NCBI GenBank assembly: GCA_034717985.1
Contig: JAYEMH010000004.1
Coordinates: 1 to 19,974, forward strand
DNA: 19,974 bases
Direction of reading: 5' to 3'
DNA from: JAYEMH01 sp034717985 [NCBI: Candidatus Ratteibacteria bacterium]
GTDB lineage: Bacteria; CAZDME01; JAYEMH01
Shown: piece by piece, positions 1,801 through 19,858 of the stretch
Numbering within the stretch: the first letter of the stretch is position 1
Layout of the letters: each line of letters opens with the position of its first letter
Translations under genes and position numbers: made by a program
Notes under the pieces: generated by a model
Database searches by the model: none
Seen by the model: the letters and a program-made list of their open reading frames with translations, nothing else
What the model was told of the DNA's origin: nothing

Positions 1801-1824
1801 AAGGTGAGAACCACAGAGGTCACA

Positions 1825-1844
1825 CCTGCCTGCCGGCAGGCAGG
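1825..1844. repeat. Perfect 20-bp GC-rich palindrome
   Basis: cctgcctgccggcaggcagg is its own reverse complement over all 20 bases. It is embedded in an AT-rich dispersed repeat between pilin genes 1 and 2. A close relative (CCTGCCTGCCGGCGAGGCAGG) sits inside the coding sequences of pilins 4 and 5. There is no T-run after it, so it is not an obvious terminator. Confidence 0.85.
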
Positions 1845-1853
1845 GAGAAAAAG

Positions 1854-1967
1854 AAATTAAAAAATAAAGAAAAAAGAATTTCTGACGGGATTTACAGGAT
1901 TAAAAGGGAAGTGAAGAAGATGGGATTTAAGTCAGGGAAAATTAAAAAACTGTGGACTGTGGACTGT
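1854..1967 (+). repeat. 114-bp direct repeat, copy A (upstream region and leader of pilin 2)
   Basis: Bases 1854-1967 are identical at every position to 2522-2635. The unit contains an AT-rich stretch, an arm of the GACRGGATTTACAGGATT family, the Shine-Dalgarno region (AAAAGGGAAGTG), the ATG and the first 16 codons of the prepilin leader, including the start of the heptanucleotide repeat. Confidence 0.95.
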
Positions 1968-2480
1968 GGACTGTGGACTAAAAGAGGCTTTACCCTAATT
2001 GAACTTATGATAGCGGTAGGAATTATCGGCCTTCTCCTTACCATGGCTATTCCCAACTATTATAATTCGATCAAAAAGGGAAGGGATGCTCAGAGAAAAC
2101 AGGATATCCATAATATTCAGACCATACTGGCGCTGTATTATGCCGATAAGGGCGAATATCCATTATCTGGAGGAGCAAGTTCTCCTGGTGGCGGTTGGAG
2201 TAATAGCTCAGATAGCAGCTGGGATACCTTGCAGACAACACTAGCCGAATATGGGACACTTCCTAAAGATCCCTTGAACGAGACCGGAGGCTGGGCTGGA
2301 AATGGAAAGTGTAATTATTCTTTTTATTCGCAATTGGGTGGGTGTTCCCAACAATGGTATATGCTCGTTTATAAACTAGAGGCTCCCGGCAATGAGGTAA
2401 GTCCCGGGGTTACCGCCTGCAATGGCGATTATTACAATTATGGCGGAACCGGAACAATGACTGTCGGAATGTCTGGGTAG
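1920..2480 (+). CDS. Prepilin 2, GspG-like pilin with repeat-encoded long leader
   Basis: 186 residues from ATG 1920, preceded by GGGAAGTG. Longer upstream starts would run back through pilin 1 and are rejected. The prepilin-peptidase site is TKRG^FTLIELMIAVGIIG, so the leader is 23 residues (MGFKSGKIKK then LWTVDCGLWTKRG), several times the usual 5-10. The LWTVDCGLWT part is encoded by the heptanucleotide repeat (ACTGTGG)4. The mature protein is GspG-like: after the helix come YYNSIKKGRDAQRKQDIHNI, ALYYADKGEYP and then LPKDPLN. This family has a calcium-binding loop in characterised members. The leader should be removed on processing, so repeat residues would not reach the fibre. It may be a pseudopilin-like minor subunit. 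Confidence 0.88.
   Translation: MGFKSGKIKKLWTVDCGLWTKRGFTLIELMIAVGIIGLLLTMAIPNYYNSIKKGRDAQRKQDIHNIQTILALYYADKGEYPLSGGASSPGGGWSNSSDSSWDTLQTTLAEYGTLPKDPLNETGGWAGNGKCNYSFYSQLGGCSQQWYMLVYKLEAPGNEVSPGVTACNGDYYNYGGTGTMTVGMSG
1949..1979 (+). repeat. Heptanucleotide tandem repeat (ACTGTGG)4 in prepilin 2 leader
   Basis: Four perfect copies of ACTGTGG (1949-1976) followed by ACT. Because 7 is not a multiple of 3, every forward frame reads the same cyclic peptide TVDCGLW with no stop. Gain or loss of one unit would shift the frame of everything downstream. Confidence 0.95.
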
Positions 2481-2521
2481 TCAGGAAAAGAATTTAACCA
2501 CAGAGCACACAGAGAAAAAGA

Positions 2522-2635
2522 AAATTAAAAAATAAAGAAAAAAGAATTTCTGACGGGATTTACAGGATTAAAAGGGAAGTGAAGAAGATGGGATTTAAGT
2601 CAGGGAAAATTAAAAAACTGTGGACTGTGGACTGT
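2522..2635 (+). repeat. 114-bp direct repeat, copy B (upstream region and leader of pilin 3)
   Basis: Identical to 1854-1967, 668 bp apart. Identity ends inside the heptanucleotide run, where copy B instead enters a 66-bp insertion (2636-2701). Upstream, the similarity continues through AACCACAGAG but is interrupted in copy A by the 20-bp palindrome at 1825-1844. Confidence 0.95.
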
Positions 2636-3214
2636 CTGTTCCGAGTGCAGTCAAGGGATGGACTGCTTGTGCCCGCTTGTGCCCGTAAGGGTGTTAGGGT
2701 ATGGACTAAAAGAGGTTTTACCCTGATTGAACTTATGATAGTGGTGGGAGTTATTGGTTTTATTCTGGCGCTGGGTATTCCTAATTATATGAAAGCAACA
2801 AAGAAAGCCAGAGATGCCAAAAGAATCAATGACTTACAGCAGATTCAGCTTGCTTTGGAGATGTATTATGACGACAATCATCATTATCCCGTGAACACGG
2901 ATAACGATTGCTATGGATGGGATGCTGGATACGATAATAGCGATCCGTTTATACAACCCCTTGAAGATGGAGGATATATGACAAAGGTTCCCACGGATCC
3001 AATTTCTAAACCCGGGAACTCATGCTGGGGATATCGCTATCATCGCTATGGGGCGGGTAGCGATGGTTGTGATTCTGATCGGGGGGCTTTTTACGTTTTA
3101 GGTGTAAACTTGGAGGCCAGCGATGGACCTCATCCGGCCAGCCCGGGTTGGAGTTGTCCAGACAGGGATTGGCAGGATGAACGTGAATGGGTTACCGGGG
3201 CATTTGAACACTAA
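2588..3214 (+). CDS. Prepilin 3, GspG-like pilin with very long interrupted leader
   Basis: 208 residues from ATG 2588; a GTG at 2579 is in frame but has no room for a ribosome site. The peptidase site is TKRG^FTLIELMIVVGVIGF, giving a leader of about 43 residues, extraordinary for a prepilin. The first 16 codons are identical in DNA to pilin 2. A 66-bp block (2636-2701) then replaces part of the heptanucleotide run, without breaking the frame. The mature part is GspG-like (KKARDAKRINDLQQIQLALE, then YYDDNHHYP and KVPTDPI) but otherwise differs from pilin 2, with an acidic, Trp/Cys/Gly-rich C-terminus. Such a long leader may impair export, or initiation may occur at one of the in-frame GTGs inside it (V or V-W codons); the sequence does not decide this. 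Confidence 0.82.
   Translation: MGFKSGKIKKLWTVDCLFRVQSRDGLLVPACARKGVRVWTKRGFTLIELMIVVGVIGFILALGIPNYMKATKKARDAKRINDLQQIQLALEMYYDDNHHYPVNTDNDCYGWDAGYDNSDPFIQPLEDGGYMTKVPTDPISKPGNSCWGYRYHRYGAGSDGCDSDRGAFYVLGVNLEASDGPHPASPGWSCPDRDWQDEREWVTGAFEH
2636..2701 (+). repeat. 66-bp in-frame insertion within prepilin 3 leader
   Basis: Compared with pilin 2, this block replaces 6 bp of the heptanucleotide array, a net +60 bp or 20 codons. It contains an inverted repeat GCAGTC (2647-2652) / GACTGC (2661-2666) around AAGGGATG and two tandem copies of CTTGTGCCCG (2666-2685). It looks like a small palindromic element that landed in the repeat. Confidence 0.7.
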
Positions 3215-3239
3215 TAAAAGGAAAAGGGAGGTGGAGAAG

Positions 3240-3659
3240 ATGAGAAAGAGTAGCAAAAAACTATGCCTGCCTGCCGGCGAGGCAGGGACTATGGACTGTG
3301 GACTGTGGACTAAAAGAGGATTCACCCTGGTGGAAATTATGGTGGTAGTGGGAATCATTGGTCTTATTCTTTCAATGGCAATTCCTAATTTCATTAATGC
3401 GCGAAAGAAAACCCGGGCTAAGGTTTGTGTAAATAACCTGCATCAGATTCATGGGGCGAAACAGCAGTGGGCTTTGGATACTGATGCCGCCGAGACGGCA
3501 ACACCCACTCCTACTTCAGTATTATCGGTTTATCTGGAAGAGTGGCCGGTTACCTGTCCGGCCGGCGGAACTTACGGCGTGAATGCAATAGGCACAGTGC
3601 CAACCTGCAGCGAAGGAACGGCAACTACCGCTGTAACATGGGATGACCATGTTTTTTAA
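3240..3659 (+). CDS. Prepilin 4, PilA/ComGC-like pilin with repeat-encoded leader
   Basis: 139 residues from ATG 3240, preceded by the strong site GGGAGGTG; an upstream in-frame extension overlaps pilin 3 and is rejected. The leader is 28 residues: MRKSSKKLCLPAGEAGTMDC then GLWTKRG, cut before FTLVEIMVVVGIIG. LCLPAGEAG comes from a GC-rich palindrome and TMDCGLWT from three heptanucleotides (the first degenerate). The mature protein has the array signature KVCVNNLHQIHGAKQQWALD, then CPAGGTYGVNAIGTVPTCSE and WDDHVF. The paired cysteines of CPAGG and PTC probably form the pilin disulfide loop (inference). Pilins 1, 5 and 6 belong to the same family. Confidence 0.88.
   Translation: MRKSSKKLCLPAGEAGTMDCGLWTKRGFTLVEIMVVVGIIGLILSMAIPNFINARKKTRAKVCVNNLHQIHGAKQQWALDTDAAETATPTPTSVLSVYLEEWPVTCPAGGTYGVNAIGTVPTCSEGTATTAVTWDDHVF
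3255..3290 (+). repeat. 36-bp direct repeat with near-palindrome, copy in prepilin 4 leader
   Basis: Identical to 3738-3773. It runs from an A6 tract through CTATG and CCTGCCTGCCGGCGAGGCAGG to GGACT, encoding KLCLPAGEAGT in both genes. The core differs from the perfect palindrome at 1825-1844 by a small insertion in the right arm. Confidence 0.92.
3288..3311 (+). repeat. Heptanucleotide repeat in prepilin 4 leader
   Basis: ACTATGG, then two perfect ACTGTGG units (3295-3308) and ACT, immediately before the AAAAGAGG that encodes the KRG of the processing site. Confidence 0.88.
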
Positions 3660-3674
3660 AATTTGGGGATAGGA

Positions 3675-4142
3675 ATGGGGGTAGGGGTGCCATTAGGAAA
3701 GTTAATAGTCAATAGTCGACGGTCCATAGAAAAGCGTAAAAAACTATGCCTGCCTGCCGGCGAGGCAGGGACTCTGAACTGTGGACGGTGGACTGGTTTC
3801 ACCCTGGTAGAAATAATGATTGTGGTGACAATCTTGGGAATTTTAGCCGCCATTGTCGCTCCTTATTATGTCCGGGCCCGGGAAGAAGCTAAAGCTAAAG
3901 CCTGTATTTGCAATCTTAAAGAAATTGAAGGAGCCAAGGAAAGATGGGCCATTTCTATGGATGTTGACCGCTGGGCGGTGCCGGAGTGGACTGAACTCGT
4001 GCCGGATTTTTTAAAAACCGAACCCCACTGTCCGGCCGGAGGTACTTACGCGATCGGTGATTCACATACTATTCCGACCTGTGATATTGGAAGCAATGAG
4101 ACGGCAGAAAAGTATGACGACCATATTCTTTATAACCAGTGA
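3675..4142 (+). CDS. Prepilin 5, PilA/ComGC-like pilin, unusual leader without basic residues at the cut
   Basis: 155 residues if translation starts at ATG 3675; a TTG at 3663 and a GTG at 3687 are in frame, and no start has a convincing ribosome site. The leader would be 42 residues. It crosses a short AGTNNAT-type heptad run (3700-3727), the 36-bp palindromic repeat (LCLPAGEAGT) and degenerate ACTGTGG units, ending GRWTG^FTLVEIMIVVTILG. Unlike its neighbours it lacks the Lys-Arg before the -1 Gly. The mature part is a normal family member: KACICNLKEIEGAKERWAIS, CPAGGTY, IPTCDIG, YDDHILYNQ. Mature similarity to pilin 6 is strong (NLK-EGAKERWA), suggesting duplication. It may be expressed poorly or by coupling to pilin 4, whose stop is only 15 bp upstream. 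Confidence 0.78.
   Translation: MGVGVPLGKLIVNSRRSIEKRKKLCLPAGEAGTLNCGRWTGFTLVEIMIVVTILGILAAIVAPYYVRAREEAKAKACICNLKEIEGAKERWAISMDVDRWAVPEWTELVPDFLKTEPHCPAGGTYAIGDSHTIPTCDIGSNETAEKYDDHILYNQ
3700..3729 (+). repeat. Degenerate AGTNNAT heptanucleotide run in prepilin 5 leader
   Basis: Units AGTTAAT, AGTCAAT, AGTCGAC, GGTCCAT, AG follow each other at 7-bp period (3700-3729). The same heptad type reappears expanded in the pyrD-pyrF gap at 18391. Confidence 0.65.
3738..3773 (+). repeat. 36-bp direct repeat with near-palindrome, copy in prepilin 5 leader
   Basis: Identical to 3255-3290 and read in the same frame (KLCLPAGEAGT). The mature coding regions downstream of the two copies are much less alike, so the identity is a property of the repeat and not simply of gene duplication. 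Confidence 0.92.
3771..3794 (+). repeat. Degenerate heptanucleotide repeat in prepilin 5 leader
   Basis: ACTCTGA, ACTGTGG, ACGGTGG, ACT at 7-bp spacing, running directly into GGTTTC (Gly-Phe of the cleavage site). The AAAAGAG found in pilins 2-4 at this junction is missing. Confidence 0.75.
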
Positions 4143-4186
4143 GAAACAGAAAATAACCACTAAAATGAACTACAGGAAAAGAAATT

Positions 4187-4440
4187 AACCACAGTGCATA
4201 GAGAAGAAAAAGAAAATGCAAAAATAAAGACAGAAAGTTTCTGACAGGATTTACAGGATTTAAAAAGGATTAAAGAATAAAAAAAGTAACAAAAAAATGT
4301 GTAGGGACAGGTCGTGACCTGTCCGTTATGGACAAAAAGATAAAAAAGATAAAGAATTTTAGACACGATAGGCAGGATGAAATTAGACAGAATTGACAAA
4401 ATCAAAGATTTAAAATCCTGTTAATCCTGTCAAAAGAAAA
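4187..4440. repeat. Pilin 5-6 intergenic repeat block with MITE-like inverted ends
   Basis: This 317-bp gap holds no credible gene. It begins with AACCACAGTGCATAGAGA and an A-rich stretch, a diverged copy of the sequence upstream of pilins 2 and 3. A TGACAGGATTTACAGGATTT arm at 4242 has an inverted partner at 4409-4432 (22 of 24 positions pair, allowing one indel). Between them, 4305-4324 is a hairpin with 9-bp perfect arms (GGACAGGTC / GACCTGTCC). This resembles a small non-autonomous element, or two dispersed repeats in opposite orientation. No T-run follows the inner hairpin. Confidence 0.7.
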
Positions 4441-11411: not shown

Positions 11412-13163
11412 ATGCCGGATAGTAAAGTTTTAGAGGTCTATCGAAAAATCATTTTCTGGGGCCTGCTTGTTATCATAGCGGTTTTACCCTGTCTTTATAC
11501 CACAAAAACTTTTCATCTGGTTTTAATTAAAACTGTCTTCCTTCAGCTGGCATTGAGTTTTCTTTTCTTTGTCTGGTTTTTGAAACTGGGGGAGGGTGAA
11601 TTTATAAAGCTTCCTCAAAATCCCGTCATTATCCCCTTTGCTTTATTCGTATTATACGCTTTTCTCTCCGCTTCATTTTCGCTGTATAAATATAATAGTT
11701 TCCGGTCTTTTTTTTCTTATCTCGGTTATTTTTTGCTTTTTATTTTCGTAATTGAAAATGTTAAAAAAAGATGGCAAATCCGTCTCGTTTCGCAGATTAT
11801 TTTAATAACGGCCGGATTTATCTGCCTTTACAGCCTTTATAAGAATATCAGCTTTTTAAAGTTTAATTTTTGGAAGGCTCCCGTTTACTTTAATTTTTTC
11901 GGCAACCCTAATTTTTTCGCCTCTTACCTGCTTGCTGTTCTCCCGTTAAGCTTCTCTCTTTTTATCTATTCGCATTTCAAGTTTGAGAAGATTGTTCTAT
12001 TTATCCTTTCTCTTTTAATCAGTCTGAGTTTGCTTTTGACTTACAGCCAGGGATGCTGGATTATTTTCTTTTTCTATTTTATGCTTTTTTACATTGGTCT
12101 AATTATCAATTATTGGCGCAAAAAACAACTCTTGAAGAGTTTTCTCTTCGGCGCATTCCCTTTTTTAATCTTTGTTGTTTTATATGGTGTGCTTTTTTAT
12201 TCTCAGGGACCGGTAGAGAAATATTTGTTTCCGATAAACGCCTCCTTAGCTGTTCGAAAGGATCTCTGGGGAAGTGCCTGGCAGATGATTAAGATTTTTC
12301 CGGTTATGGGCTGGGGGACAGGCAATTTCCATATTTATTTCCCTTTATACCGAACGCTTGAATCTTTACTGATAATTGAATCGCCCATTGTTTTTCATGC
12401 CCACAGTGAGTTTTTAGAGCTCGCTGCCGAGATGGGATTTCTGGGTTTAACCTTATTTCTCTGGATGATTTTATCTTTTTTAATATATACCCTGAAAGTT
12501 TGGCTGAAAGCTCCGCTTGCCTGGAAAAAATATCCGTTAGCCTTTTTTTTGGGGGGTTTAGGAATTCTAATGCATAATCTGATTTCTCCTTCTTTGCGCT
12601 GGACGGCGATTGCCGCCTTTTTCTGGCTAATGGCAGCTTTGGCGGTATCGGTGAAGAGGGTAATTTCAGAGGAAGAAAGAGACGCTGTCTTTATTACTTT
12701 GAAGAACCGGCTTTTCCCGCTTTTAAGACCGGTGAGGAAAGGACTGCTTTACGCTTTAGCCATAGTCCTATTCATACCCCTGTCTTTAGAGATAATAAAG
12801 CCATATCGGGCAGAAACCGCGTTAAAAGAGGGAATAAAAGCCTGGGATAAAGAGAATTTTTTCCAGGCTATCGTAAAATTCGAGCAAGCAAAAAGGATTA
12901 ATCCCTACTGTTTATCGGCCTATTATCGATTGGGTTACAGTTACCGAATGACCGGTAACTATCAAAAGGCTTTGGAAAACTATCAGGCATTAGAGAAGAT
13001 TTGTCCAAACTACGCCCGGCTTCATTACAATTTAGGCAGTCTTTATCAGGATTTAGGGCAGTTTCGGCAGGCGATCGGAGAGTTTAAGACTGCTTTACAA
13101 CGGGAAGACAGAGTTTTTTCCCATGACCGGTTAAGGGAAATTTATTTTGAATTGGAAAAATGA
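11412..13163 (+). CDS. O-antigen ligase/polymerase-like membrane protein with C-terminal TPRs
   Basis: 583 residues from ATG 11412 (AAGG 5 bp upstream). An in-frame GTG at 11364 lies in a repeat and would add repeat-encoded residues. About ten or more hydrophobic segments precede a Wzy_C-type region: GNPNFFASYLL (about 164), a GWGTGNFHIYFPLYR motif (about 300-314) and AHSEFLELAAEMGFLGL (about 329-346). These are the periplasmic-loop signatures of O-antigen ligases, polymerases and pilin oligosaccharyltransferases. A soluble tail (about 467-560) has two to three TPRs (SAYYRLGYSYRMTGNYQKAL, then HYNLGSLYQDLGQF). It likely transfers or polymerises undecaprenyl-linked glycans. The substrate is unknown: lipopolysaccharide, or pilin given the neighbours. 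Confidence 0.8.
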   Translation: MPDSKVLEVYRKIIFWGLLVIIAVLPCLYTTKTFHLVLIKTVFLQLALSFLFFVWFLKLGEGEFIKLPQNPVIIPFALFVLYAFLSASFSLYKYNSFRSFFSYLGYFLLFIFVIENVKKRWQIRLVSQIILITAGFICLYSLYKNISFLKFNFWKAPVYFNFFGNPNFFASYLLAVLPLSFSLFIYSHFKFEKIVLFILSLLISLSLLLTYSQGCWIIFFFYFMLFYIGLIINYWRKKQLLKSFLFGAFPFLIFVVLYGVLFYSQGPVEKYLFPINASLAVRKDLWGSAWQMIKIFPVMGWGTGNFHIYFPLYRTLESLLIIESPIVFHAHSEFLELAAEMGFLGLTLFLWMILSFLIYTLKVWLKAPLAWKKYPLAFFLGGLGILMHNLISPSLRWTAIAAFFWLMAALAVSVKRVISEEERDAVFITLKNRLFPLLRPVRKGLLYALAIVLFIPLSLEIIKPYRAETALKEGIKAWDKENFFQAIVKFEQAKRINPYCLSAYYRLGYSYRMTGNYQKALENYQALEKICPNYARLHYNLGSLYQDLGQFRQAIGEFKTALQREDRVFSHDRLREIYFELEK

Positions 13164-13189
13164 GATTTCTGGAAAAGTCCAGAAATCTC
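13162..13189. terminator. Perfect 12-bp hairpin after the O-antigen-ligase-like gene
   Basis: GAGATTTCTGGA (13162-13173) pairs with TCCAGAAATCTC (13178-13189) around AAAG, starting within the stop codon. On the + strand no T-run follows. On the minus strand the stem is followed by ATTTTT, so it looks like a better terminator in that direction. It may be a factor-assisted or 3'-protecting structure for this gene. Confidence 0.45.
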
Positions 13190-13320: not shown

Positions 13321-13347
13321 GGTTGCTGAAGCGTTTTTTCAGCAACC
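13321..13347. other. 10-bp hairpin upstream of the pyr promoter
   Basis: GGTTGCTGAA (13321-13330) pairs perfectly with TTCAGCAACC (13338-13347) around a 7-base loop. It stands 14 bp before the -35 box. It could end transcription arriving from upstream, though no T-run follows it, or be another dispersed palindrome. Confidence 0.5.
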
Positions 13348-13360
13348 GCTAAAATAATTC

Positions 13361-13389
13361 TTGACAGAACTTAAATTTGATGGTACAGT
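13361..13389 (+). promoter_or_regulatory. Sigma70-type promoter of the pyr operon
   Basis: A perfect TTGACA (13361-13366), 17-bp spacer, then TACAGT (13384-13389), which matches four of the six TATAAT positions and is preceded by TGG, an extended -10. The predicted transcript starts near 13396, just before the PyrR-binding hairpin, as expected for an attenuated leader of about 180 nt before pyrR. Confidence 0.8.
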
Positions 13390-13405
13390 TTTAACACGTA
13401 GATAA

Positions 13406-13438
13406 CCTTTTAAGTTAGTTCAGCGAAGCTAACAAAGG
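13406..13438 (+). promoter_or_regulatory. PyrR-binding RNA hairpin (pyr leader)
   Basis: The lower stem is CCTTT (13406-13410) / AAAGG (13434-13438), with a 5'-side bulge TAA (13411-13413). The upper stem is GTTAGTT (13414-13420) / AGCTAAC (13427-13433; one G-U), and the hexaloop is CAGCGA (13421-13426). Known PyrR sites have the same architecture: two stems, an asymmetric 5' bulge and a hexaloop of consensus CNGNGA. It lies upstream of a gene encoding PyrR itself. UMP/UTP-bound PyrR should stabilise it. Its 3' strand AAAGG is also the ribosome site of the leader peptide just downstream. Confidence 0.85.
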
Positions 13439-13445
13439 AAATAAA

Positions 13446-13502
13446 ATGAGAGAACCAGTTTCTTGCCAAAAAATCTTAGCCTATCTGGAATCAATCGGGT
13501 AG
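13446..13502 (+). CDS. 18-residue pyr leader peptide
   Basis: ATG 13446 to TAG 13500-13502 encodes MREPVSCQKILAYLESIG. The ribosome site AAAGGA (13434-13439) is optimally spaced, 6 bp from the ATG. The stop codon lies inside the 3' arm of the terminator hairpin (13495-13505). A ribosome reaching the stop would cover that arm and block terminator formation. The peptide sequence itself shows no obvious function. I infer that translation of it, rather than the product, matters. The ORF is short, so chance occurrence is possible, but the placement of both the ribosome site and the stop is hard to explain otherwise. Confidence 0.65.
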   Translation: MREPVSCQKILAYLESIG

Positions 13503-13510
13503 GTTTTTTT
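13478..13510 (+). terminator. Intrinsic terminator/attenuator upstream of pyrR
   Basis: AGCCTATCTGG (13478-13488) pairs with TCGGGTAGGTT (13495-13505), including several G-U pairs, around AATCAA, followed by T7 (13504-13510). It lies between the PyrR-binding hairpin and pyrR. Stem stability is moderate, suiting a regulated terminator. Confidence 0.75.
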
Positions 13511-13574
13511 ATATGGATAATTTTAAATTGCTAATTGTTAATTTTGAATTTTGCAATTAAAAAGGGATAAAGAT

Positions 13575-14123
13575 ATGATACAGAAAGAACAAGCTATAAT
13601 AATGGATTCTACTGCCTTGAGCCGCACCTTGACCAGAATTACGCATGAAATCTTAGAGAAAAACAAAGGCAGTAAAAAGCTGGCAATTGTCGGCATAAGA
13701 AATCGCGGCGCATATCTTGCCGAACGGTTGGTTAAAAAAATTATGGAAATTGATAAGGGGAAGGCCCCTTTAGGTATTCTGGATATTACCCTTTATCGGG
13801 ATGATTTAACCGCTATCGCTTCCCAGCCTATCGTCCGCAAAACCGAAATTCCTTTTGATATCAACGGCAAAAAAGTTGTTTTGGTAGATGATGTGCTTTA
13901 TACCGGCCGCACCATTCGGGCCGCTTTGGATGCTTTAATTGATTTTGGCCGTCCAGAGGAGATTCAGTTAGCCATCCTCATTGATCGCGGGCATAGAGAA
14001 CTACCTATTCGGGCTGATTTTGTGGGGAAGAATATTCCTACTTCCCCCAGGGAAATTGTTGAGGTGAGGCTTAAAGAAGTCGATGGTGAGGATGCGGTGG
14101 TAATTATGGAAAAAGAGGGATAA
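13575..14123 (+). CDS. pyrR: Pyrimidine operon regulator / uracil phosphoribosyltransferase PyrR
   Basis: 182 residues from ATG 13575 (AAAGGG 8 bp upstream). PyrR senses UMP/UTP and binds pyr leader RNA; many members also have weak uracil phosphoribosyltransferase activity. Motifs: [18 protein letters not shown] near 14-31, [23 protein letters not shown], the PRPP loop [13 protein letters not shown] (about 101-113), [20 protein letters not shown] and FVGKNIPTS. All are standard and the length is normal (about 180). It is the first gene of the cluster and follows its own candidate binding site, which indicates autoregulation. pyrB begins 5 bp after its stop. Confidence 0.97.
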
Positions 14124-14128
14124 TAAAG

Positions 14129-15052
14129 ATGATCTGGCAAAAGAAAAATCTTCTGGGGCTGGAAGAATTGACCGCTGAAGAAATAAATTTTGTTTTAGAT
14201 TCAGCCGATTCTTTTAAAGAAATTTCCACCCGGGCAATAAAAAAAGTTCCGGCTTTAAGAGGTAAAACCGTAGCCAATTTATTTTTTGAACCAAGCACCC
14301 GGACGAGAATGTCGTTTGAACTGGCGGCTAAACGACTTAGCGCCGACTTAGTAAATCTTTCTCCCTCTTCCAGTTCTCTGGTCAAAGGAGAAACTTTAAT
14401 TGACACCGTTAAAAATATTGAGGCCTTTAAGGTAGATATAATGGTGGTTCGTCATTCTGTTTCCGGATTTCCCTATTGCCTCTCGGAATTCACGGATGCT
14501 CCGATTATCAATGCCGGCGACGGAGCCCACGAGCATCCTACCCAGGCTCTTCTGGATCTCTATACAATTAGGGAGAAAAAGGGAAAAATTTCCGGACTGA
14601 AAGTTGCCATAATTGGAGATATCCTGCACAGCCGGGTAGCCCGTTCCAACATCTGGGGATTAACTAAATTGGGCGCCGAGGTTATTCTTTGCGGTCCCCT
14701 GACTTTATTACCCCGGGAAGTGGATAAATTACCGGTAAAGATAAGTTTTAATTTTGAAGAGGCGGTAAAAGAAGCAGATATTGTTTATCTCTTAAGAGTT
14801 CAAAAAGAGAGGGAGAAAAGGAATCTTTTTCCCAGCCTGCGTGAATATGCCAATCTCTTCGGCCTCAATAAATATAGACTGAAATTACTCAAGAAAGAAT
14901 GCCTGATTATGCATCCGGGGCCGGTTAACCGGGGAGTGGAATTGGATCCTGAGGTGGCTGACGGGCCGCGGGCGGTTATTCTGGAACAGGTAACTAACGG
15001 CTTAGCCATTCGGATGGCTGTCCTTTATATACTCTCGGGAGTGCCGCGTTAA
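14129..15052 (+). CDS. pyrB: Aspartate carbamoyltransferase catalytic subunit PyrB
   Basis: 307 residues. It joins carbamoyl phosphate and L-aspartate to give carbamoyl aspartate, the first committed step. The carbamoyl-phosphate site [12 protein letters not shown] (STRTR 55-59), [12 protein letters not shown] (about 135), [14 protein letters not shown] and the aspartate-loop [13 protein letters not shown] are all intact. No pyrI regulatory subunit follows; instead pyrC does, as in PyrR-type clusters. GAGGGA upstream of the ATG overlaps the end of pyrR, so translation is probably coupled. Confidence 0.97.
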
Positions 15053-15060
15053 AGAAAAGT

Positions 15061-15092
15061 AGACGGGAGACGGTAAATGGGAGACGGGAGAT
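15061..15092 (+). repeat. AGACGGG heptanucleotide repeat supplying the pyrC ribosome site
   Basis: AGACGGG, AGACGGT, AAATGGG, AGACGGG, AGATGG follow at 7-bp period in the 38-bp pyrB-pyrC gap. The GGGAG at 15079-15083 lies 7 bp before the pyrC ATG, and the ATG itself belongs to the last partial unit. The initiation region is therefore built from the repeat. Confidence 0.75.
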
Positions 15093-16395
15093 GGATCTAC
15101 TAATTAAATCCGGACGGGTCATTGATCCGGAAACAAATTTGGATGAAATCCTTGATATTTTAATTGAAAAGGGAAAAATTACAAAAATCGGAAAAGTTAT
15201 AAAAGCCGCCGGTGATGTGAAAATTCTCCCGGCCAAAGATAAACTGGTTTTTCCGGGATTAATCGATTTACACACCCATCTTCGGGAGCCGGGGGGAGAA
15301 GATGCGGAAACGATTGAAAGCGGAACAAAAGCCGCCGCCCGAGGCGGCTACACCTCGGTTGTCTGCATGCCTAACACCCGGCCTCCGATTGATAATCGCT
15401 CGGTAGCGGAGTTTATATACACCCATGCTAAACGAAAAAGTCCGGTTAATGTTTACGTGGCGGGAACGATAACCAATCAGCGGCAAGGAGACCGATTAAG
15501 TGAAATTGGTGAGTTAAAAGAAGCCGGGGTAGTGGCTTTATCTGATGACGGTTCTCCGGTACTGAATTCAGAAGTTATGCGTCGGGCTTTGGAATATTGC
15601 CGAATGTTTAATCTGCCGATTATCAGTCACGCCGAAGATATTTATCTTTCCAATGGGGGGGTAATGCATGAAGGTTTTATTTCCGCCCGCCTGGGCCTGC
15701 AGGGAATTCCGTCTGTTGCCGAAGAACTTGCCGTGGCTCGGGATATAATACTGGCCGAATATACCGGGGGGCGTCTTCATTTAGCCCACCTGAGCACTGA
15801 GGGCAGCGTAGAATTATTACGCCAGGCTAAAAAGAGAAAAATTAAAGTAACCGGAGAGACCTGTCCTCATTATTTTAGTTTAACGGATAAGGCCGTAGAA
15901 ACTTTTAAAACCTCCACCAAGATTAATCCGCCTCTGAGAACCGAGCGTGACCGGCAAGCTGTTATCAGGGGATTAAAGGATGGAACAATTGATGTTATTG
16001 CCACCGACCACGCTCCCCATACCCTGGCGGCCAAGGAGCTGGATTATATTTCCGCTCCATTTGGCATCGTGGGATTGGAAACAGCTTTACCGGTAGCTAT
16101 TACCAAATTGATAAAAGAGGCAAAATTTAGTTTTTCTGCCCTGGCGGCTAAAATGAGCCTGAATCCGGCAAAAATTCTGGGTCTTAGTGATAAGGGCAGA
16201 ATTCAAGTCGGCAAAGCGGCAGACATAACCCTTGTTGCCCCGGATAAAGAGTATCTGGTTGAGGTGGAAAATTTTGCCTCAAAAGGGAGGAGTTCTCCTT
16301 TTCAAGGATGGCGGCTCCAGGGTAAAGTAGAGGCCACGATAGTTGGCGGGAAAGCAGTCTATATACCGCCCTTGATTACGCAGATTAAAATTTAG
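15091..16395 (+). CDS. pyrC: Dihydroorotase PyrC (type I)
   Basis: 434 residues. It cyclises carbamoyl aspartate to dihydroorotate using zinc. The amidohydrolase ligands are present: His61 and His63 in GLIDLHTHLREPG, the Asp pair of SDDGSPV (152-153), His180 (ISHAED), His233 (LAHLSTEG) and the catalytic Asp306 (ATDHAPHT). The length and HLR motif make it an active class I enzyme and not a pseudo-DHOase partner of PyrB. The C-terminus is odd: the last residues LITQIKI and the TAG come from the first unit of a GATTACRCAGATT repeat, so the natural end may have been replaced by the repeat. Confidence 0.97.
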   Translation: MDLLIKSGRVIDPETNLDEILDILIEKGKITKIGKVIKAAGDVKILPAKDKLVFPGLIDLHTHLREPGGEDAETIESGTKAAARGGYTSVVCMPNTRPPIDNRSVAEFIYTHAKRKSPVNVYVAGTITNQRQGDRLSEIGELKEAGVVALSDDGSPVLNSEVMRRALEYCRMFNLPIISHAEDIYLSNGGVMHEGFISARLGLQGIPSVAEELAVARDIILAEYTGGRLHLAHLSTEGSVELLRQAKKRKIKVTGETCPHYFSLTDKAVETFKTSTKINPPLRTERDRQAVIRGLKDGTIDVIATDHAPHTLAAKELDYISAPFGIVGLETALPVAITKLIKEAKFSFSALAAKMSLNPAKILGLSDKGRIQVGKAADITLVAPDKEYLVEVENFASKGRSSPFQGWRLQGKVEATIVGGKAVYIPPLITQIKI

Positions 16396-16411
16396 ATTAC
16401 ACAGATTAAAA
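16374..16411 (+). repeat. GATTACRCAGATTAAAA direct repeat across the pyrC stop codon
   Basis: 17-bp units at 16374-16390 and 16395-16411 differ at one position (GATTACG versus GATTACA). The first is coding, and the TAG overlaps the second. The motif is found inverted at 13287-13318 and in variant form at 11359. Confidence 0.85.
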
Positions 16412-16494
16412 ACATCGTCGAGAGTATTTGTGGTCCAAAAAGACAGCCAAAAAATTGAAAAGCAAATTGAAAATTTAGGTAAGGATATTAATTA

Positions 16495-17325
16495 ATGCCG
16501 TCCTCTCCTGATAATATAATTCAAATAAAGGCTAAGATTCTATCGCATAAAAAAATAGCCCCGGGTTATTTTCTCCTGAAGTTAGATGCCCCGGCGATTG
16601 CCAAACTTAGCCTGCCCGGACAATTTGTCCATCTGCGAGTTTTAGATTCGGATATTCCCCTGCTTCGCCGGCCATTCAGTCTCCACCGGATTAATCCTGA
16701 CTCAATTGAGCTCTTATACCAGCTCAAAGGTGAGGGGACCCGTATTTTAAGCGAGAGAAAAAAGGATGAAATGGTGGATTTAATCGGCCCTCTGGGGAAC
16801 GGGTTTGATTTAACCGATATTCCTGAAGGGAAGAACATTGTTTTGATTGGCGGCGGAATCGGGACTGCCCCGCTGGTAACTCTGACTGAGGGGTTACTCA
16901 AGCGGTATGACAGAGCAAAATTAACTTTTTTCCTTGGCGCCCGCTCTCAAGAGTTAATTCTGGGGGAGGGAGAAATTCGGCATTCAGGAATAGATTGTCT
17001 CATTTCTACCGACGACGGTAGTTATGGGGAGAAAGGTCCGGTTACCCGCCTCTTTGAAAAGAAACTGACCGATTGGAAGGGAAAACCGGGAATGGTTTTT
17101 ACCTGTGGTCCTAAAGGCATGTTAAAGGTTATGGGTAGTTTAAGCCGAAGATTTAAATTTCCCTGTCAGGTTTCGCTGGAAGAAAATATGGGCTGCGGGA
17201 TTGGCGTTTGTTTAGGCTGTGCGGTGCGAATAAGGACTAACCAGGGAAGAGATGAATCTTTTGAGTATAAAAGGGTTTGTAAAGACGGGCCGGTTTTTTG
17301 GGCTTCAGAGGTTATTTTTGATTAA
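16495..17325 (+). CDS. pyrK: Dihydroorotate dehydrogenase electron-transfer subunit PyrK
   Basis: 276 residues. PyrK pairs with class 1B PyrD, carrying electrons from dihydroorotate to NAD+ through FAD and a [2Fe-2S] cluster. An FAD-binding beta-barrel (about 1-105) has the motif LLRRPFSLH, followed by the NAD-binding domain with IGGGIGTAPLV and FTCGPKGMLKVM. The cluster ligands are Cys234, Cys239, Cys242 and Cys262 (CGIGVCLGC...VCKDGPVF). The ATG 16495 has GGAT about 10 bp upstream. A 99-bp repeat-containing gap separates it from pyrC. The following pyrD is of the matching class. Confidence 0.96.
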   Translation: MPSSPDNIIQIKAKILSHKKIAPGYFLLKLDAPAIAKLSLPGQFVHLRVLDSDIPLLRRPFSLHRINPDSIELLYQLKGEGTRILSERKKDEMVDLIGPLGNGFDLTDIPEGKNIVLIGGGIGTAPLVTLTEGLLKRYDRAKLTFFLGARSQELILGEGEIRHSGIDCLISTDDGSYGEKGPVTRLFEKKLTDWKGKPGMVFTCGPKGMLKVMGSLSRRFKFPCQVSLEENMGCGIGVCLGCAVRIRTNQGRDESFEYKRVCKDGPVFWASEVIFD

Positions 17326-17332
17326 GAAAATG

Positions 17333-17417
17333 AACCACAGAGAACACAGAAACAAAATCAAAAGAGAAAGAATTTAACCACGAATAACATTAATTTAAAC
17401 AAAAATGTGTAGGGAAA
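17333..17417. repeat. Degenerate AACCACAGAG repeat between pyrK and pyrD
   Basis: AACCACAGAGAACACAGAAAC (17333) followed by an A-rich stretch, AATTTAACCACGAAT and AATGTGTAGGG resembles the blocks upstream of pilins 2, 3 and 6 (AACCACAGAG at 2497, AATGTGTAGGG at 4297) in the same order. No gene is visible in this 151-bp gap. Confidence 0.65.
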
Positions 17418-17476
17418 GAAAAAATAGGGAACAATCGGTTTAATCATTAATAGAAAAATAAAAGGAAATAAACCAG

Positions 17477-18406
17477 GTGGAAATTAAATCAAGATTAGAG
17501 ATTGATTTTGCCGGAATAAAACTTAAAAATCCTATTTTAGTTTCTTCCGGAACCTTTGGCTGCGGCCGGGAATATGCTGAATTAATAGATTTAAATCGTC
17601 TGGGGGGGATTATTACTAAATCCATTACCGAGAAGCCTCATAAAGGGAATCCACCGCCCCGGCTGGCGGAGGTTTCCGGGGGTTTGCTTAATGCTATCGG
17701 TCTGGAGAATGAAGGGATTGATAATTTTCTCCGGGAAAAACTGCCGTTTTTGAGGCAGTTTAAAACATCTATCATCGTCAATATTGCCGGGTTTACCGAA
17801 GATGAGTATGTGCGTTTAACCGCTCGTTTGAATCAGGCAGAAGGTATTGCCGCCCTTGAGGTCAATCTTTCCTGTCCTAATGTCAAAAAAGGCGGCATTA
17901 ACTTCGGCTCCGAACCGGAGATTTTGAAACGCTTAGTAAAGAGAATTCGCGCATCCACTAAATTGCCTCTTTTAATTAAACTTTCGCCTAATGTCGGTGA
18001 TATTGTTAAATTTGCCGGAATTGCCGCCGAAGCCGGCGCGGATGGACTTTCCTTGATTAATACGGTTTTAGGCCTCTCTATAGATGTTAATTCTTTTAAA
18101 CCTAAATTAGCCAATGTTACCGGCGGACTTTCCGGTCCGGCCATCCGTCCGATTGCCTTGAGGATGATTTGGGATGTTTACAAGCGTATTAAACTTCCCA
18201 TTTTAGGCAGTGGGGGAATTATGAGAACAGAAGACGCTCTGGAATTCTTTATTGCCGGTGCCCGGGCAGTAGCCATCGGGACGGCCAATTTCGTTAATCC
18301 CCGGGCTTCTTTAGAAATTATTCAGGGAATTAAAAAATATCTGGATAAGCATGAGTTTAAGAGTATTAAAGAGATTATTGGAAAGTTAAAAGTGAATAGT
18401 CGATAG
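17477..18406 (+). CDS. pyrD: Dihydroorotate dehydrogenase catalytic subunit PyrD (class 1B)
   Basis: 309 residues from GTG 17477, with AAGGAAA 9 bp upstream. It oxidises dihydroorotate to orotate using FMN. NPILVSSGTFGCGREY, TKSITEKPHKGNPPPR, NAIGLENEGID and EVNLSCPNVKKGG carry the substrate and FMN contacts; Cys133 is the class 1 catalytic base. GSGGIMRTEDALEFFIAGA and AVAIGTANF form the FMN phosphate site. Together with pyrK this makes the NAD-linked heterotetramer. The last residues (KVNSR) and the stop are encoded by the beginning of the AGTGAAT repeat array. Confidence 0.97.
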   Translation: MEIKSRLEIDFAGIKLKNPILVSSGTFGCGREYAELIDLNRLGGIITKSITEKPHKGNPPPRLAEVSGGLLNAIGLENEGIDNFLREKLPFLRQFKTSIIVNIAGFTEDEYVRLTARLNQAEGIAALEVNLSCPNVKKGGINFGSEPEILKRLVKRIRASTKLPLLIKLSPNVGDIVKFAGIAAEAGADGLSLINTVLGLSIDVNSFKPKLANVTGGLSGPAIRPIALRMIWDVYKRIKLPILGSGGIMRTEDALEFFIAGARAVAIGTANFVNPRASLEIIQGIKKYLDKHEFKSIKEIIGKLKVNSR

Positions 18407-18524
18407 TAAATAGTGAATGGTGAATAGTGAATAGTGAATAGTGAATAGTGAATAGTGAATAGTCGTTAACTAGCGACTACTAAATACTAACGACTAAATA
18501 CTATCGACTAACGACTAAATACTA
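18391..18524. repeat. AGTGAAT heptanucleotide array with inverted arm between pyrD and pyrF
   Basis: Eleven 7-bp units run from 18391 to 18467. Seven are exactly AGTGAAT, five of them consecutive (18426-18460); the others are AGTCGAT, AGTAAAT, GGTGAAT and AGTCGTT. The right half (18472-18522) is built of ACTAAAT/ACGACTA-type units in the opposite sense. TAGTCGATAGTA (18397-18408) is the exact reverse complement of 18499-18510. The whole gap could fold into a long imperfect hairpin. Confidence 0.9.
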
Positions 18525-19262
18525 ATGAGAATGAAGATTGTTCCTCAGGATAAATTGATTGTTGCCCTGGATACGGGAAATTTGATTTCGGCCCAAAAGT
18601 TAGTAGGAAAATTGGGAAAACTGGTTTCTATCTATAAAGTGGGCATTGAACTTTTTACCGCCGTCGGCCCGGAAATTCTAAAATGGTTAAAGAAGAAAGA
18701 GAAAAAGATTTTTCTGGATTTAAAATTTCACGATATTCCCAGGAGTGTTTCCTCAGCTATTCTCTCAGCGGCCGGAAACGATATCTTTATGGTCAACATT
18801 CATCTTTCAGGCGGGGCGGCGATGGCCAGGGAAGCAGTGATAAAGGTTAAAGAAATTTCCAAAAAAGAAGGGAAGGAGCCTCCTCTTATTATCGGGGTAA
18901 CGGTTTTAACCAGCCTGCTTGGCGATGATTTGAAAAGAATGGGGATTAATAAGGATTTGGAAACGCTGGTGCGTGATTTTGCCATTATGGCTGAACAAAA
19001 CGGCTTGGACGGCGTGGTGGCTTCCGCCCGGGAGGCCAGGATGATAAAAGAAAATTCAGGCCGGGAATTTTTAATTGTTACCCCGGGTATTCGCCTGAAA
19101 GAGGATTCCCCGGGTGATCAAAAGAGGGTAACTACTCCGAAAGAGGCGATTGCGGCCGGGGCGGATTTCTTAGTGGTTGGCCGGCCGATAACCGAAGCGC
19201 CGAATCCCTGCCGGATAGCTCAAAGAATACTATCAGAAATTAAAGAAGGACAAAATTGCTGA
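18525..19262 (+). CDS. pyrF: Orotidine 5'-phosphate decarboxylase PyrF
   Basis: 245 residues. It decarboxylates OMP to UMP, the last step. The catalytic tetrad region is clear: Asp16 (VALDTGN), Lys38 (YKVG), and Asp65-Lys67-Asp70 (FLDLKFHDIP). VTPGIRL and FLVVGRPITEAPNP bind the phosphate. The ATG at 18525 or 18531 directly follows the heptanucleotide hairpin and has no recognisable ribosome site, so expression may depend on coupling or on an unusual initiation context. It overlaps pyrE by 7 bp. Confidence 0.96.
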   Translation: MRMKIVPQDKLIVALDTGNLISAQKLVGKLGKLVSIYKVGIELFTAVGPEILKWLKKKEKKIFLDLKFHDIPRSVSSAILSAAGNDIFMVNIHLSGGAAMAREAVIKVKEISKKEGKEPPLIIGVTVLTSLLGDDLKRMGINKDLETLVRDFAIMAEQNGLDGVVASAREARMIKENSGREFLIVTPGIRLKEDSPGDQKRVTTPKEAIAAGADFLVVGRPITEAPNPCRIAQRILSEIKEGQNC

Positions 19263-19858
19263 CTGAAAAAGAAATCTGGAAAATATTGAAAGAAACCGGG
19301 GCGATTCTTAAAGGTCATTTTCTCCTTTCCTCCGGCCGCCACAGCGACACCTATTTTGAGAAATTCAGGATTTTAGAACATCCCGATATAACCCATAGAT
19401 TTTGCCGGCACTTAAAAGAAAAATTTAAAGATAAATCTATTGAGTTAGTCTTAGGGCTGGCTACCGGAGGGATTATTCTGGGTTATGAGCTGGCTGGCCT
19501 CTTTGGGACCAGAGCGATTTTTACCGAAAGGTTTCAGGGAAAAATGGCTTTGCGAAGAGGGTTTCGGATTAGAAAAGGAGAAAAAGTATTAGTGGCCGAG
19601 GATGTGATTACTACCGGAGGGTCGGTTAAGGAGACAATTGGCATTGCCGAAGAACTGGGGGCGGATATAGTCGGAATTGCCTCCCTGGTGGACAGAACCG
19701 GGGCAAAAATAGATTTGGGATATCCCCTGAAGGCTTTGGTGTCTTTAGAGGTTAAAAGTTTTCCCGCCGGCGAGTGCCCGCTTTGCAAGAGTCAACTGCC
19801 TCTGGTTCAGCCAGGTACCCCTAAAGGGATGGTTTCGCCTAGTCGAGCTGTTAGCTAA
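19256..19858 (+). CDS. pyrE: Orotate phosphoribosyltransferase PyrE
   Basis: 200 residues from TTG 19256 (AAGGA 5 bp upstream), overlapping the end of pyrF. It converts orotate and PRPP to OMP. FLLSSGRHSDTYFEKF, LGLATGGIILGYELA, ERFQGKMALRRGFRI and the PRPP loop VLVAEDVITTGGSV (about 111-124) are intact. ECPLCKSQLPLVQPGT is the usual C-terminal end of this subfamily. The further 12 residues (PKGMVSPSRAVS) are an extension encoded by a dispersed element (19818-19838), related to one in the pilP-like gene. Confidence 0.97.
   Translation: MLTEKEIWKILKETGAILKGHFLLSSGRHSDTYFEKFRILEHPDITHRFCRHLKEKFKDKSIELVLGLATGGIILGYELAGLFGTRAIFTERFQGKMALRRGFRIRKGEKVLVAEDVITTGGSVKETIGIAEELGADIVGIASLVDRTGAKIDLGYPLKALVSLEVKSFPAGECPLCKSQLPLVQPGTPKGMVSPSRAVS
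19818..19838. repeat. Dispersed element at the 3' end of pyrE
   Basis: CCCCTAAAGGGATGGTTTCGC matches the reverse complement of 7411-7431 at 19 of 21 positions, and AAGGGATGG also occurs in the insertion inside prepilin 3 (2653). It encodes the extra tail of PyrE. Confidence 0.5.

What the first reader, a model, noticed from the sequence alone, without database searches (positions are those of the whole stretch)
13361..13510. PyrR site, leader-peptide ribosome site and terminator are interlocked: a PyrR-gated leader-peptide attenuator
Seen: the PyrR hairpin (hexaloop CAGCGA, 13406-13438) contains AAAGG, the Shine-Dalgarno of an 18-codon ORF (13446-13502) whose stop codon lies in the 3' arm of a terminator (13478-13510). 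I found no convincing classical antiterminator: only 4-5 bp pairings to the terminator's 5' arm (AGATA 13400 with TATCT 13482; CCAG with CTGG). Inference: with high UMP, PyrR locks the hairpin and hides the ribosome site. The leader is then untranslated and the terminator forms. With low UMP, a ribosome reaches the stop and masks the terminator. This merges the Bacillus PyrR and E. coli pyrBI logics. I recall a similar coupled model proposed for a Thermus pyr cluster, so the novelty may be the lineage and not the principle.
Basis: partly seen in the sequence, partly recalled or inferred. Interest (0 to 1): 0.82.

Follow-up and report, generated by a model that had tools for sequence, protein, structure and literature searches.

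The report
Ribosome-gated PyrR switch before pyrimidine genes
In an uncultured Omnitrophota bacterium the switch before the pyrimidine-making genes appears to work by letting the PyrR protein decide whether a ribosome may load on a tiny leader gene that runs onto a stop signal for transcription; the arrangement recurs in most of the relatives examined and in several other phyla, while the textbook Bacillus version of the switch is built differently.

Summary
Confirmed. The window is very probably an Omnitrophota pyr operon. Its leader has a promoter, a PyrR-type hairpin, a Shine-Dalgarno sequence (SD) inside that hairpin, an 18-codon ORF ending in an intrinsic terminator, and no competitive antiterminator. 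Of 147 Omnitrophota pyrR loci, 138 gave a hairpin by model; all 138 have a start codon 4-12 nt after the SD and a terminator. The ORF's frame holds 5 stops in 1057 codons before the terminator, the other frames 113/1010 and 112/971. A held-out set of 82 sites repeats this (7/659 against 55/635 and 57/615). Terminator arms match their own PyrR hairpin no better than a stranger's; in Bacillota they do. What is kept is that translation reaches the terminator. The principle (PyrR-gated translating ribosome instead of an antiterminator) was, as I recall, proposed in 1997 for Thermus; I could not read that paper. So this is a new lineage, with broad comparative evidence, for a known principle. Nothing was tested at the bench.

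The parts
13361..13389 (+). sigma-70 type promoter TTGACA-17-TACAGT with extended -10; transcript should start near 13396 (inferred)
   Evidence: in relatives 135 of 137 leaders score 9 or more of 12 against 24 of 137 after shuffling, and in those the -10 ends 7-26 nt before the hairpin
13406..13438 (+). PyrR binding hairpin (hexaloop CAGCGA, 3-nt 5' bulge)
   Evidence: (RF00515, 50.9 bits), fold, pair counts in relatives
13434..13438 (+). Shine-Dalgarno AAAGG inside the hairpin's 3' strand
   Evidence: sequence; AGG present in 138 of 138 Omnitrophota leaders with a model hairpin
13446..13502 (+). leader ORF, 18 codons plus TAG (MREPVSCQKILAYLESIG)
   Evidence: frame-specific lack of stops in relatives
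13478..13510 (+). intrinsic terminator, stem 13478-13505 and T tract 13504-13510; holds the leader stop in its 3' arm
13575..14123 (+). pyrR (regulator/uracil phosphoribosyltransferase), first gene of the operon, with its own SD at 13562-13567
   Evidence: NF003549, 258.6 bits, cut-off 138; PDB PyrR proteins
14129..19858 (+). pyrB, pyrC, pyrK-like electron-transfer subunit (below the curated cut-offs), pyrD, pyrF, pyrE

Best explanation
It is a PyrR-gated, translation-dependent transcription attenuator. By default the terminator at 13478-13510 forms. When UMP is low, PyrR is off the RNA, the hairpin opens enough for a ribosome to load on AAAGG, and the ribosome translates the 18-codon leader behind RNA polymerase. 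It covers the terminator's 5' arm, so polymerase goes on into pyrR-pyrBCKDFE. When UMP is high, PyrR-UMP clamps the hairpin and hides the ribosome site; the leader stays untranslated and the terminator ends transcription. Shown by sequence and comparison: the parts, their order, the conserved start codon, the frame kept open to the terminator, the missing antiterminator. Inferred: that PyrR binds here in response to UMP (from homology), and that the ribosome is what blocks the terminator.
For: Hairpin matches the PyrR site and stands before pyrR. In 138 of 138 Omnitrophota leaders with a model hairpin: SD, start codon 4-12 nt on (132 ATG, 6 GTG), terminator. ATG seen 132 times against 48.3 (sd 5.6) in shuffles; Bacillota 9 of 30 against 9.1. 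Stops between ATG and terminator: 5/1057 in frame, 113/1010 and 112/971 out of frame (132 ATG leaders; Fisher 9e-37); one leader per cluster, 4/838, 83/797, 89/770. Held-out 82 sites: 77 ATG, 5 GTG/TTG, 78 terminators; stops 7/659, 55/635, 57/615. Antiterminator: own minus swapped hairpin-terminator duplex is 0.03 kcal/mol in Omnitrophota (138), -2.17 in Bacillota (78); alternative fold at least as stable as the hairpin in 6 of 135 Omnitrophota, 11 of 29 Bacillota. A second site in one genome, before a carB-like gene, has the same order of parts with different leader and terminator letters (L436).
Against: No expression or binding data. The hairpin alone already pairs the SD (AGG unpaired with probability 0.02 or less in the window), so PyrR must act on an already weak site. 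Four held-out sites have an ORF, as picked, that stops more than 12 nt before the terminator (L401, L402, L476, L482); L402 has another start codon that stays open (by eye), the other three are unexplained. In the first set four leaders have in-frame stops before the stem, three ending within 12 nt of it (L139, L178, L192) and L194 further off. Three Omnitrophota sites use the hairpin's SD for pyrR itself and show no terminator (L444, L448, L469). One Omnitrophota pyrR has no hairpin that I could see (L236). The frame test is weak in Deinococcota, the group of the Thermus model (2/175, 2/168, 12/165).
Confidence: 0.86

Rival explanations
1. Textbook Bacillus mechanism: the PyrR hairpin is an anti-antiterminator that competes with an antiterminator, and the ORF is incidental.
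For: Same hairpin family, same gene position, terminator present; in Bacillota the antiterminator signal is seen by the same methods. 6 of 135 Omnitrophota have an alternative fold as stable as the hairpin, 22 of 135 within 2 kcal/mol.
Against: No co-evolution of hairpin and terminator in Omnitrophota; window alternative 4.7 kcal/mol worse; does not explain the frame-specific lack of stops.
Confidence: 0.05
2. Control is at translation: PyrR gates the leader ORF, which is translationally coupled to pyrR; the terminator only sets a basal level.
For: The leader stop is at or past the pyrR start in about 50 of 138, and forms ATGA or TAATG with a start codon in 38 of 138. Some relatives use the SD for pyrR itself.
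Against: In the window the leader stops about 75 nt before pyrR, which has its own SD. A terminator is found in 138 of 138 leaders, and ORFs that end early mostly end at or in it.
Confidence: 0.06
3. pyrBI-like attenuation: UTP level sets polymerase pausing in the leader and so the ribosome's distance; PyrR is secondary.
For: Leader ORF overlaps the terminator, as in E. coli pyrBI (recalled).
Against: No U-rich tract is common: interval 49% A and 25% T, a TTTT run in 14 of 138. A PyrR hairpin stands in 138 of 147 leaders by model and in most of the rest by eye.
Confidence: 0.02
4. The short ORF is a chance reading frame downstream of a purine-rich hairpin.
For: The PyrR hairpin ends in AGG in Bacillota as well, so an SD comes for free.
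Against: Start-codon position and open frame far above shuffles and other frames; Bacillota show no such excess.
Confidence: 0.01

Closest known systems
Thermus strain ZO5 pyr leader (Van de Casteele and others, J Bacteriol 1997; recalled, not held)
   Same: As I recall the abstract: PyrR-dependent attenuation without an antiterminator, in which a translating ribosome prevents the terminator. Deinococcota leaders here, Thermus L080 among them, show the same parts.
   Different: Different phylum; in the window the leader stops inside the terminator, in Thermus L080 it runs on past the pyrR start.
Bacillus subtilis pyr attenuators (PyrR anti-antiterminator; PMC7430163 and PMC4347634, passages seen)
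   Same: PyrR, its hairpin, intrinsic terminator, UMP logic.
   Different: No antiterminator; a translated leader ORF takes its place.
E. coli pyrBI leader-peptide attenuator (recalled)
   Same: A ribosome on a leader ORF overlapping the terminator lets polymerase through.
   Different: Here the gate is PyrR on the ribosome site, not UTP-dependent pausing; no common U-rich tract.
Translational repression by PyrR at the gene's own SD (Mycobacterium, recalled; here Acidobacteria L043 and L063, Trueperaceae L055, Omnitrophota L444, L448, L469)
   Same: The SD inside the PyrR hairpin is what PyrR would hide.
   Different: There the hidden site belongs to pyrR itself and no terminator is found.

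Membership tests
PyrR binding site (Rfam RF00515) | Match at the curated score | tested here: not met
   50.9 bits against 54, E 3.1e-6. Of 20 genomes of relatives, 20 match at E 1 or less but 3 exceed the cut-off, so the cut-off is strict for this group.
PyrR binding site (Rfam RF00515) | CNGNGA hexaloop (recalled), upper stem, 5' bulge, lower stem | tested here: met
   Window fits. In 27 distinct hairpins 95.4% of pair cells are standard and 59 cells change on both sides, but these hairpins had been picked by a stem-and-loop pattern, which favours that result. Loop and bulge agree with the passage.
PyrR-gated coupled attenuator (Thermus model) | SD of a leader ORF inside the PyrR hairpin, start codon at proper spacing | tested here: met
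PyrR-gated coupled attenuator (Thermus model) | ORF translated into the terminator | tested here: met
   By selection on the frame only. Translation itself was not measured.
PyrR-gated coupled attenuator (Thermus model) | No antiterminator | tested here: met
PyrR-gated coupled attenuator (Thermus model) | Uracil lowers readthrough through PyrR | not testable with these tools
   needs an experiment
Bacillus PyrR anti-antiterminator attenuator | Antiterminator competing with the PyrR hairpin | tested here: not met
   Window alternative 4.7 kcal/mol worse; Omnitrophota own-minus-swapped difference 0.03 kcal/mol
E. coli pyrBI attenuator | U-rich UTP-sensing pause tract in the leader | tested here: not met
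   by composition only
PyrR translational repression | Hidden SD belongs to the regulated gene | tested here: not met
   In the window pyrR has its own SD at 13562-13567; met in L444, L448, L469

The most novel reading that the evidence does not exclude
The ribosome-gated version is the common and perhaps the ancestral form of PyrR attenuation in bacteria, and the textbook antiterminator version is a Bacillota specialty. Because a PyrR hairpin ends in a ready-made SD, the same hairpin has been used in three ways: left aside in favour of an antiterminator, used for a leader ORF over a terminator, or used for pyrR itself; the last two occur side by side within Omnitrophota.
Probability: 0.45. 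Interest if true: 0.7.

Novelty: new member of a known kind. Interest (0 to 1): 0.52.

Why it matters
It gives strong comparative support (frame-specific lack of stops, held-out replication, hairpin-terminator swaps) to a mechanism that, as far as I recall, rested on one Thermus leader. It suggests that transcription-translation coupling carries pyrimidine control in an uncultured phylum; the frame test points the same way in Nitrospirota, Zixibacteria and Desulfobacterota, and Deinococcota share the parts. It predicts that pyr expression there falls whenever leader translation is blocked, whatever the pyrimidine level, which a reporter can test.

Tried and rejected
Antiterminator: tested by longest complement, duplex energy against shuffles, own-versus-swapped pairs and constrained folding. 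The shuffle z-score alone separated poorly (below -2 in 5 of 30 Bacillota, 5 of 138 Omnitrophota, 2 of 13 others), so I rely on swaps and folding. In one search the terminator arm of the sites was taken as the stem's first half, an approximation; one search left out leaders whose terminator starts more than 90 nt after the SD (3 Omnitrophota, 1 Bacillota). My first terminator finder missed stems followed by an A before the T tract and was replaced. The loop pattern missed hairpins with an extra loop base (seen); a covariance model replaced it. Amino-acid sensing by the leader peptide: rejected, no common codon run (sample of peptides and overall composition); an NPW run in 13 of 138 comes from reading the common CCCTTGG stem, 22 of 32 times in one frame. 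Weak second RF00515 matches (L100-L110): none carries the hairpin by model. Literature searches for PyrR with leader peptide, Thermus, Omnitrophota, attenuation and translating ribosome gave nothing on this system (listings; passages only of PMC3766115, PMC2965389, PMC7430163, PMC4347634); most subscription papers are not in that library.

Full report
What is in the window. The window carries a type IV pilus secretin and pilin-like genes, a ribonuclease E/G, a membrane protein with weak ligase-type and TPR matches, then pyrR-pyrB-pyrC-pyrK-like-pyrD-pyrF-pyrE. The six best PyrR relatives in named genomes are Candidatus Omnitrophota, so the window is very probably from that phylum; no whole genome is held for it. 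The leader before pyrR has TTGACA-17-TACAGT with an extended -10, a hairpin at 13406-13438, AAAGG at 13434-13438, an 18-codon ORF at 13446-13502 and a terminator at 13478-13510. Rfam's PyrR model matches at 50.9 bits, just under its cut-off of 54. The minimum-energy fold holds hairpin and terminator at the same time. PyrR aligns along nearly its whole length to PDB PyrR proteins, the best natural one being 1ufr, named pyr mRNA-binding attenuation protein.

How relatives were chosen. 341 of 384 Omnitrophota genomes have PyrR at E 1e-40. I examined 147 distinct Omnitrophota pyrR loci: the window, 17 of the 80 loci, 30 loci less one duplicate genome (L136), and 100 regions fetched by place. These are the better PyrR matches, so the set leans towards the window's kin. 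A 32-position covariance model of the hairpin alone, knowing nothing of ORF or terminator, was built from 28 hairpins of mixed phyla. It found a hairpin within 600 nt upstream in 138 of the 147. Of the other nine, six show by eye the same arrangement (L118 with a TTG start, L127 with other coding sequence before pyrR, L137 cut by the contig end, L153, L208 with an imperfect SD, L218), L144 has its hairpin 600 nt upstream outside the fetched piece, L132 has 34 nt of upstream DNA, and L236 has none that I could see.

The leader ORF is real. In all 138 leaders the hairpin ends in AGG, a start codon follows 4-12 nt later (132 ATG, 6 GTG, most at 7-9; looked for at 3-14), and a terminator follows. 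Shuffled intervals give 48.3 (sd 5.6) ATG instead of 132, and 32.7 (sd 4.8) instead of 132 with the frame open to within 12 nt of the terminator; Bacillota, 9 of 30 against 9.1, show no excess. The strongest test needs no shuffling: between ATG and terminator the ORF's own frame has 5 stops in 1057 codons, the other two 113 in 1010 and 112 in 971 (132 ATG leaders; Fisher 9e-37, which treats codons as independent). Taking one leader from each of 114 clusters gives 4/838, 83/797 and 89/770 (108 with ATG). The stop position varies: 41 within the terminator, 43 past it, 50 at or after the approximate pyrR start, 3 just before it, 1 more than 12 nt before it (L194, where a TTG downstream would fit, by eye). 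In 38 of 138 the stop forms ATGA or TAATG with a start codon. The peptides sampled have no common sequence apart from an NPW run where the common CCCTTGG stem is read (13 of 138; the stem is read in one frame in 22 of 32). So the act of translation, not the product, seems to matter.

Held-out test. A second search, by hairpin, found 255 of 384 genomes with a site at E 0.05. From the listed matches I took 82 sites not used before: 22 of the loci given and 60 fetched regions. Of these, 77 have ATG and 5 GTG or TTG, and 78 have a terminator; stops are 7/659 in frame, 55/635 and 57/615 out of frame; 73 of 82 pass all conditions. The nine that fail: L407 (sequence masked), L429 (by eye its stop lies in a terminator hairpin that my finder missed), L444, L448 and L469 (the SD serves pyrR itself), and L401, L402, L476, L482 (ORF as picked ends early; L402 has an alternative start). 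One site, L436, is a second PyrR site in a genome of the first set. It lies before a gene for carbamoyl phosphate synthase large subunit and has the same order of parts. It is the only genome of the 255 with two matches; in 37 genomes searched with laxer filters, 33 had one site and 4 none.

No antiterminator. In Bacillota the terminator's 5' arm fits the genome's own PyrR hairpin better than other genomes' hairpins (n 78, mean difference -2.17 kcal/mol, 0 of 2000 sign flips as low). In Omnitrophota the difference is 0.03 (n 138), and it is not negative in Nitrospirota (25), Deinococcota (27), Zixibacteria (16) or Desulfobacterota (18). With the hairpin's own pairs forbidden, the alternative is at least as stable in 11 of 29 Bacillota, 6 of 135 Omnitrophota and 1 of 13 others. 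So the Bacillota signal is partial in single leaders but clear as a group. The promoter lies so close that the transcript should begin about ten bases before the hairpin, leaving little room for a partner upstream.

Other phyla. The hairpin model matched 78 of 111 genomes around Thermus (Deinococcota), 64 of 148 around a Nitrospirae locus, 57 of 98 around a Zixibacteria locus, 88 of 119 around Desulfotruncus (Bacillota) and 19 of 99 around a Syntrophaceae locus (here called Desulfobacterota) at E 0.01; phylum names are mine, from the titles of the centre loci. Only the best loci (up to 30 a group) were read. Non-redundant sites with ATG, a short ORF and a terminator reached: Nitrospirota 22 of 29 (stops 0/228, 14/218, 14/214; 4 sites open a frame of 100 codons or more); Deinococcota 17 of 29, nine others with GTG or TTG (2/175, 2/168, 12/165, so little contrast; many Thermus closely related); Zixibacteria 11 of 29 (0/108, 9/105, 7/102; 13 of 29 without a terminator, 3 with a long frame); Desulfobacterota 12 of 20 (0/112, 7/105, 8/102); Bacillota 6 of 51, where 30 of 51 show complementarity of 8 or more between hairpin and terminator arm, against 1 to 3 sites in each of the other four groups. 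AGG closes the hairpin in 51 of 51, 29 of 29 three times, and 19 of 20, so the SD belongs to the PyrR site whether or not an ORF uses it.

Mechanism. In the window the SD-bearing lower stem is worth about 3.5 kcal/mol and pairs the AGG almost completely without protein, while the anti-SD pairing is about -5.6. A ribosome can therefore compete, and PyrR, by clamping bulge and stem, can prevent it (inference). The median distance from ATG to terminator stem is 28 nt. A merely initiating ribosome should not reach the stem, so a few codons must be translated (inference from recalled footprint sizes). The default state is off; translation of the leader is the on signal.

Known or new. The Bacillus mechanism is described in PMC7430163 and PMC4347634 (passages). 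The Thermus proposal of 1997 is recalled and not held. The finding is therefore a new lineage for a known principle, with comparative evidence that I did not find in the library (searches named in Tried and rejected).

Noticed in passing
L436 1-422 (genome G151, contig C3): A second PyrR site with the same leader-ORF/terminator arrangement, before a carB-like gene; the only genome of 255 with two matches.
   Followed up: yes
L444, L448, L469: Omnitrophota in which the PyrR hairpin's SD belongs to pyrR itself and no terminator is found: a translational variant inside the same phylum.
   Followed up: partly
L042, L185, L187, L189, L206, L212, L219, between leader terminator and pyrR: Several Omnitrophota carry alike palindromic repeats (of the kind GAGGCCACAACTTACGG...CGTAAGTTGT...GGCC) just after the leader terminator.
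   Followed up: no
window 1814-4277: A row of pilin-like genes separated by long near-identical repeats (120 nt at 98%, 57 nt at 95%) that overlap the mechanical ORFs.
   Followed up: no
window 13162-13189 and 13321-13347: Two dyads between the upstream gene and the pyr promoter; the first is terminator-like on the minus strand, the second was seen by eye.
   Followed up: no
L127 680-1520: The PyrR leader stands about 780 nt before pyrR, with other coding sequence, not identified, between them.
   Followed up: no
L053 2363-2500: An Acidobacteria pyrR with the hairpin about 106 nt upstream but no terminator found: fits none of the three classes.
   Followed up: no
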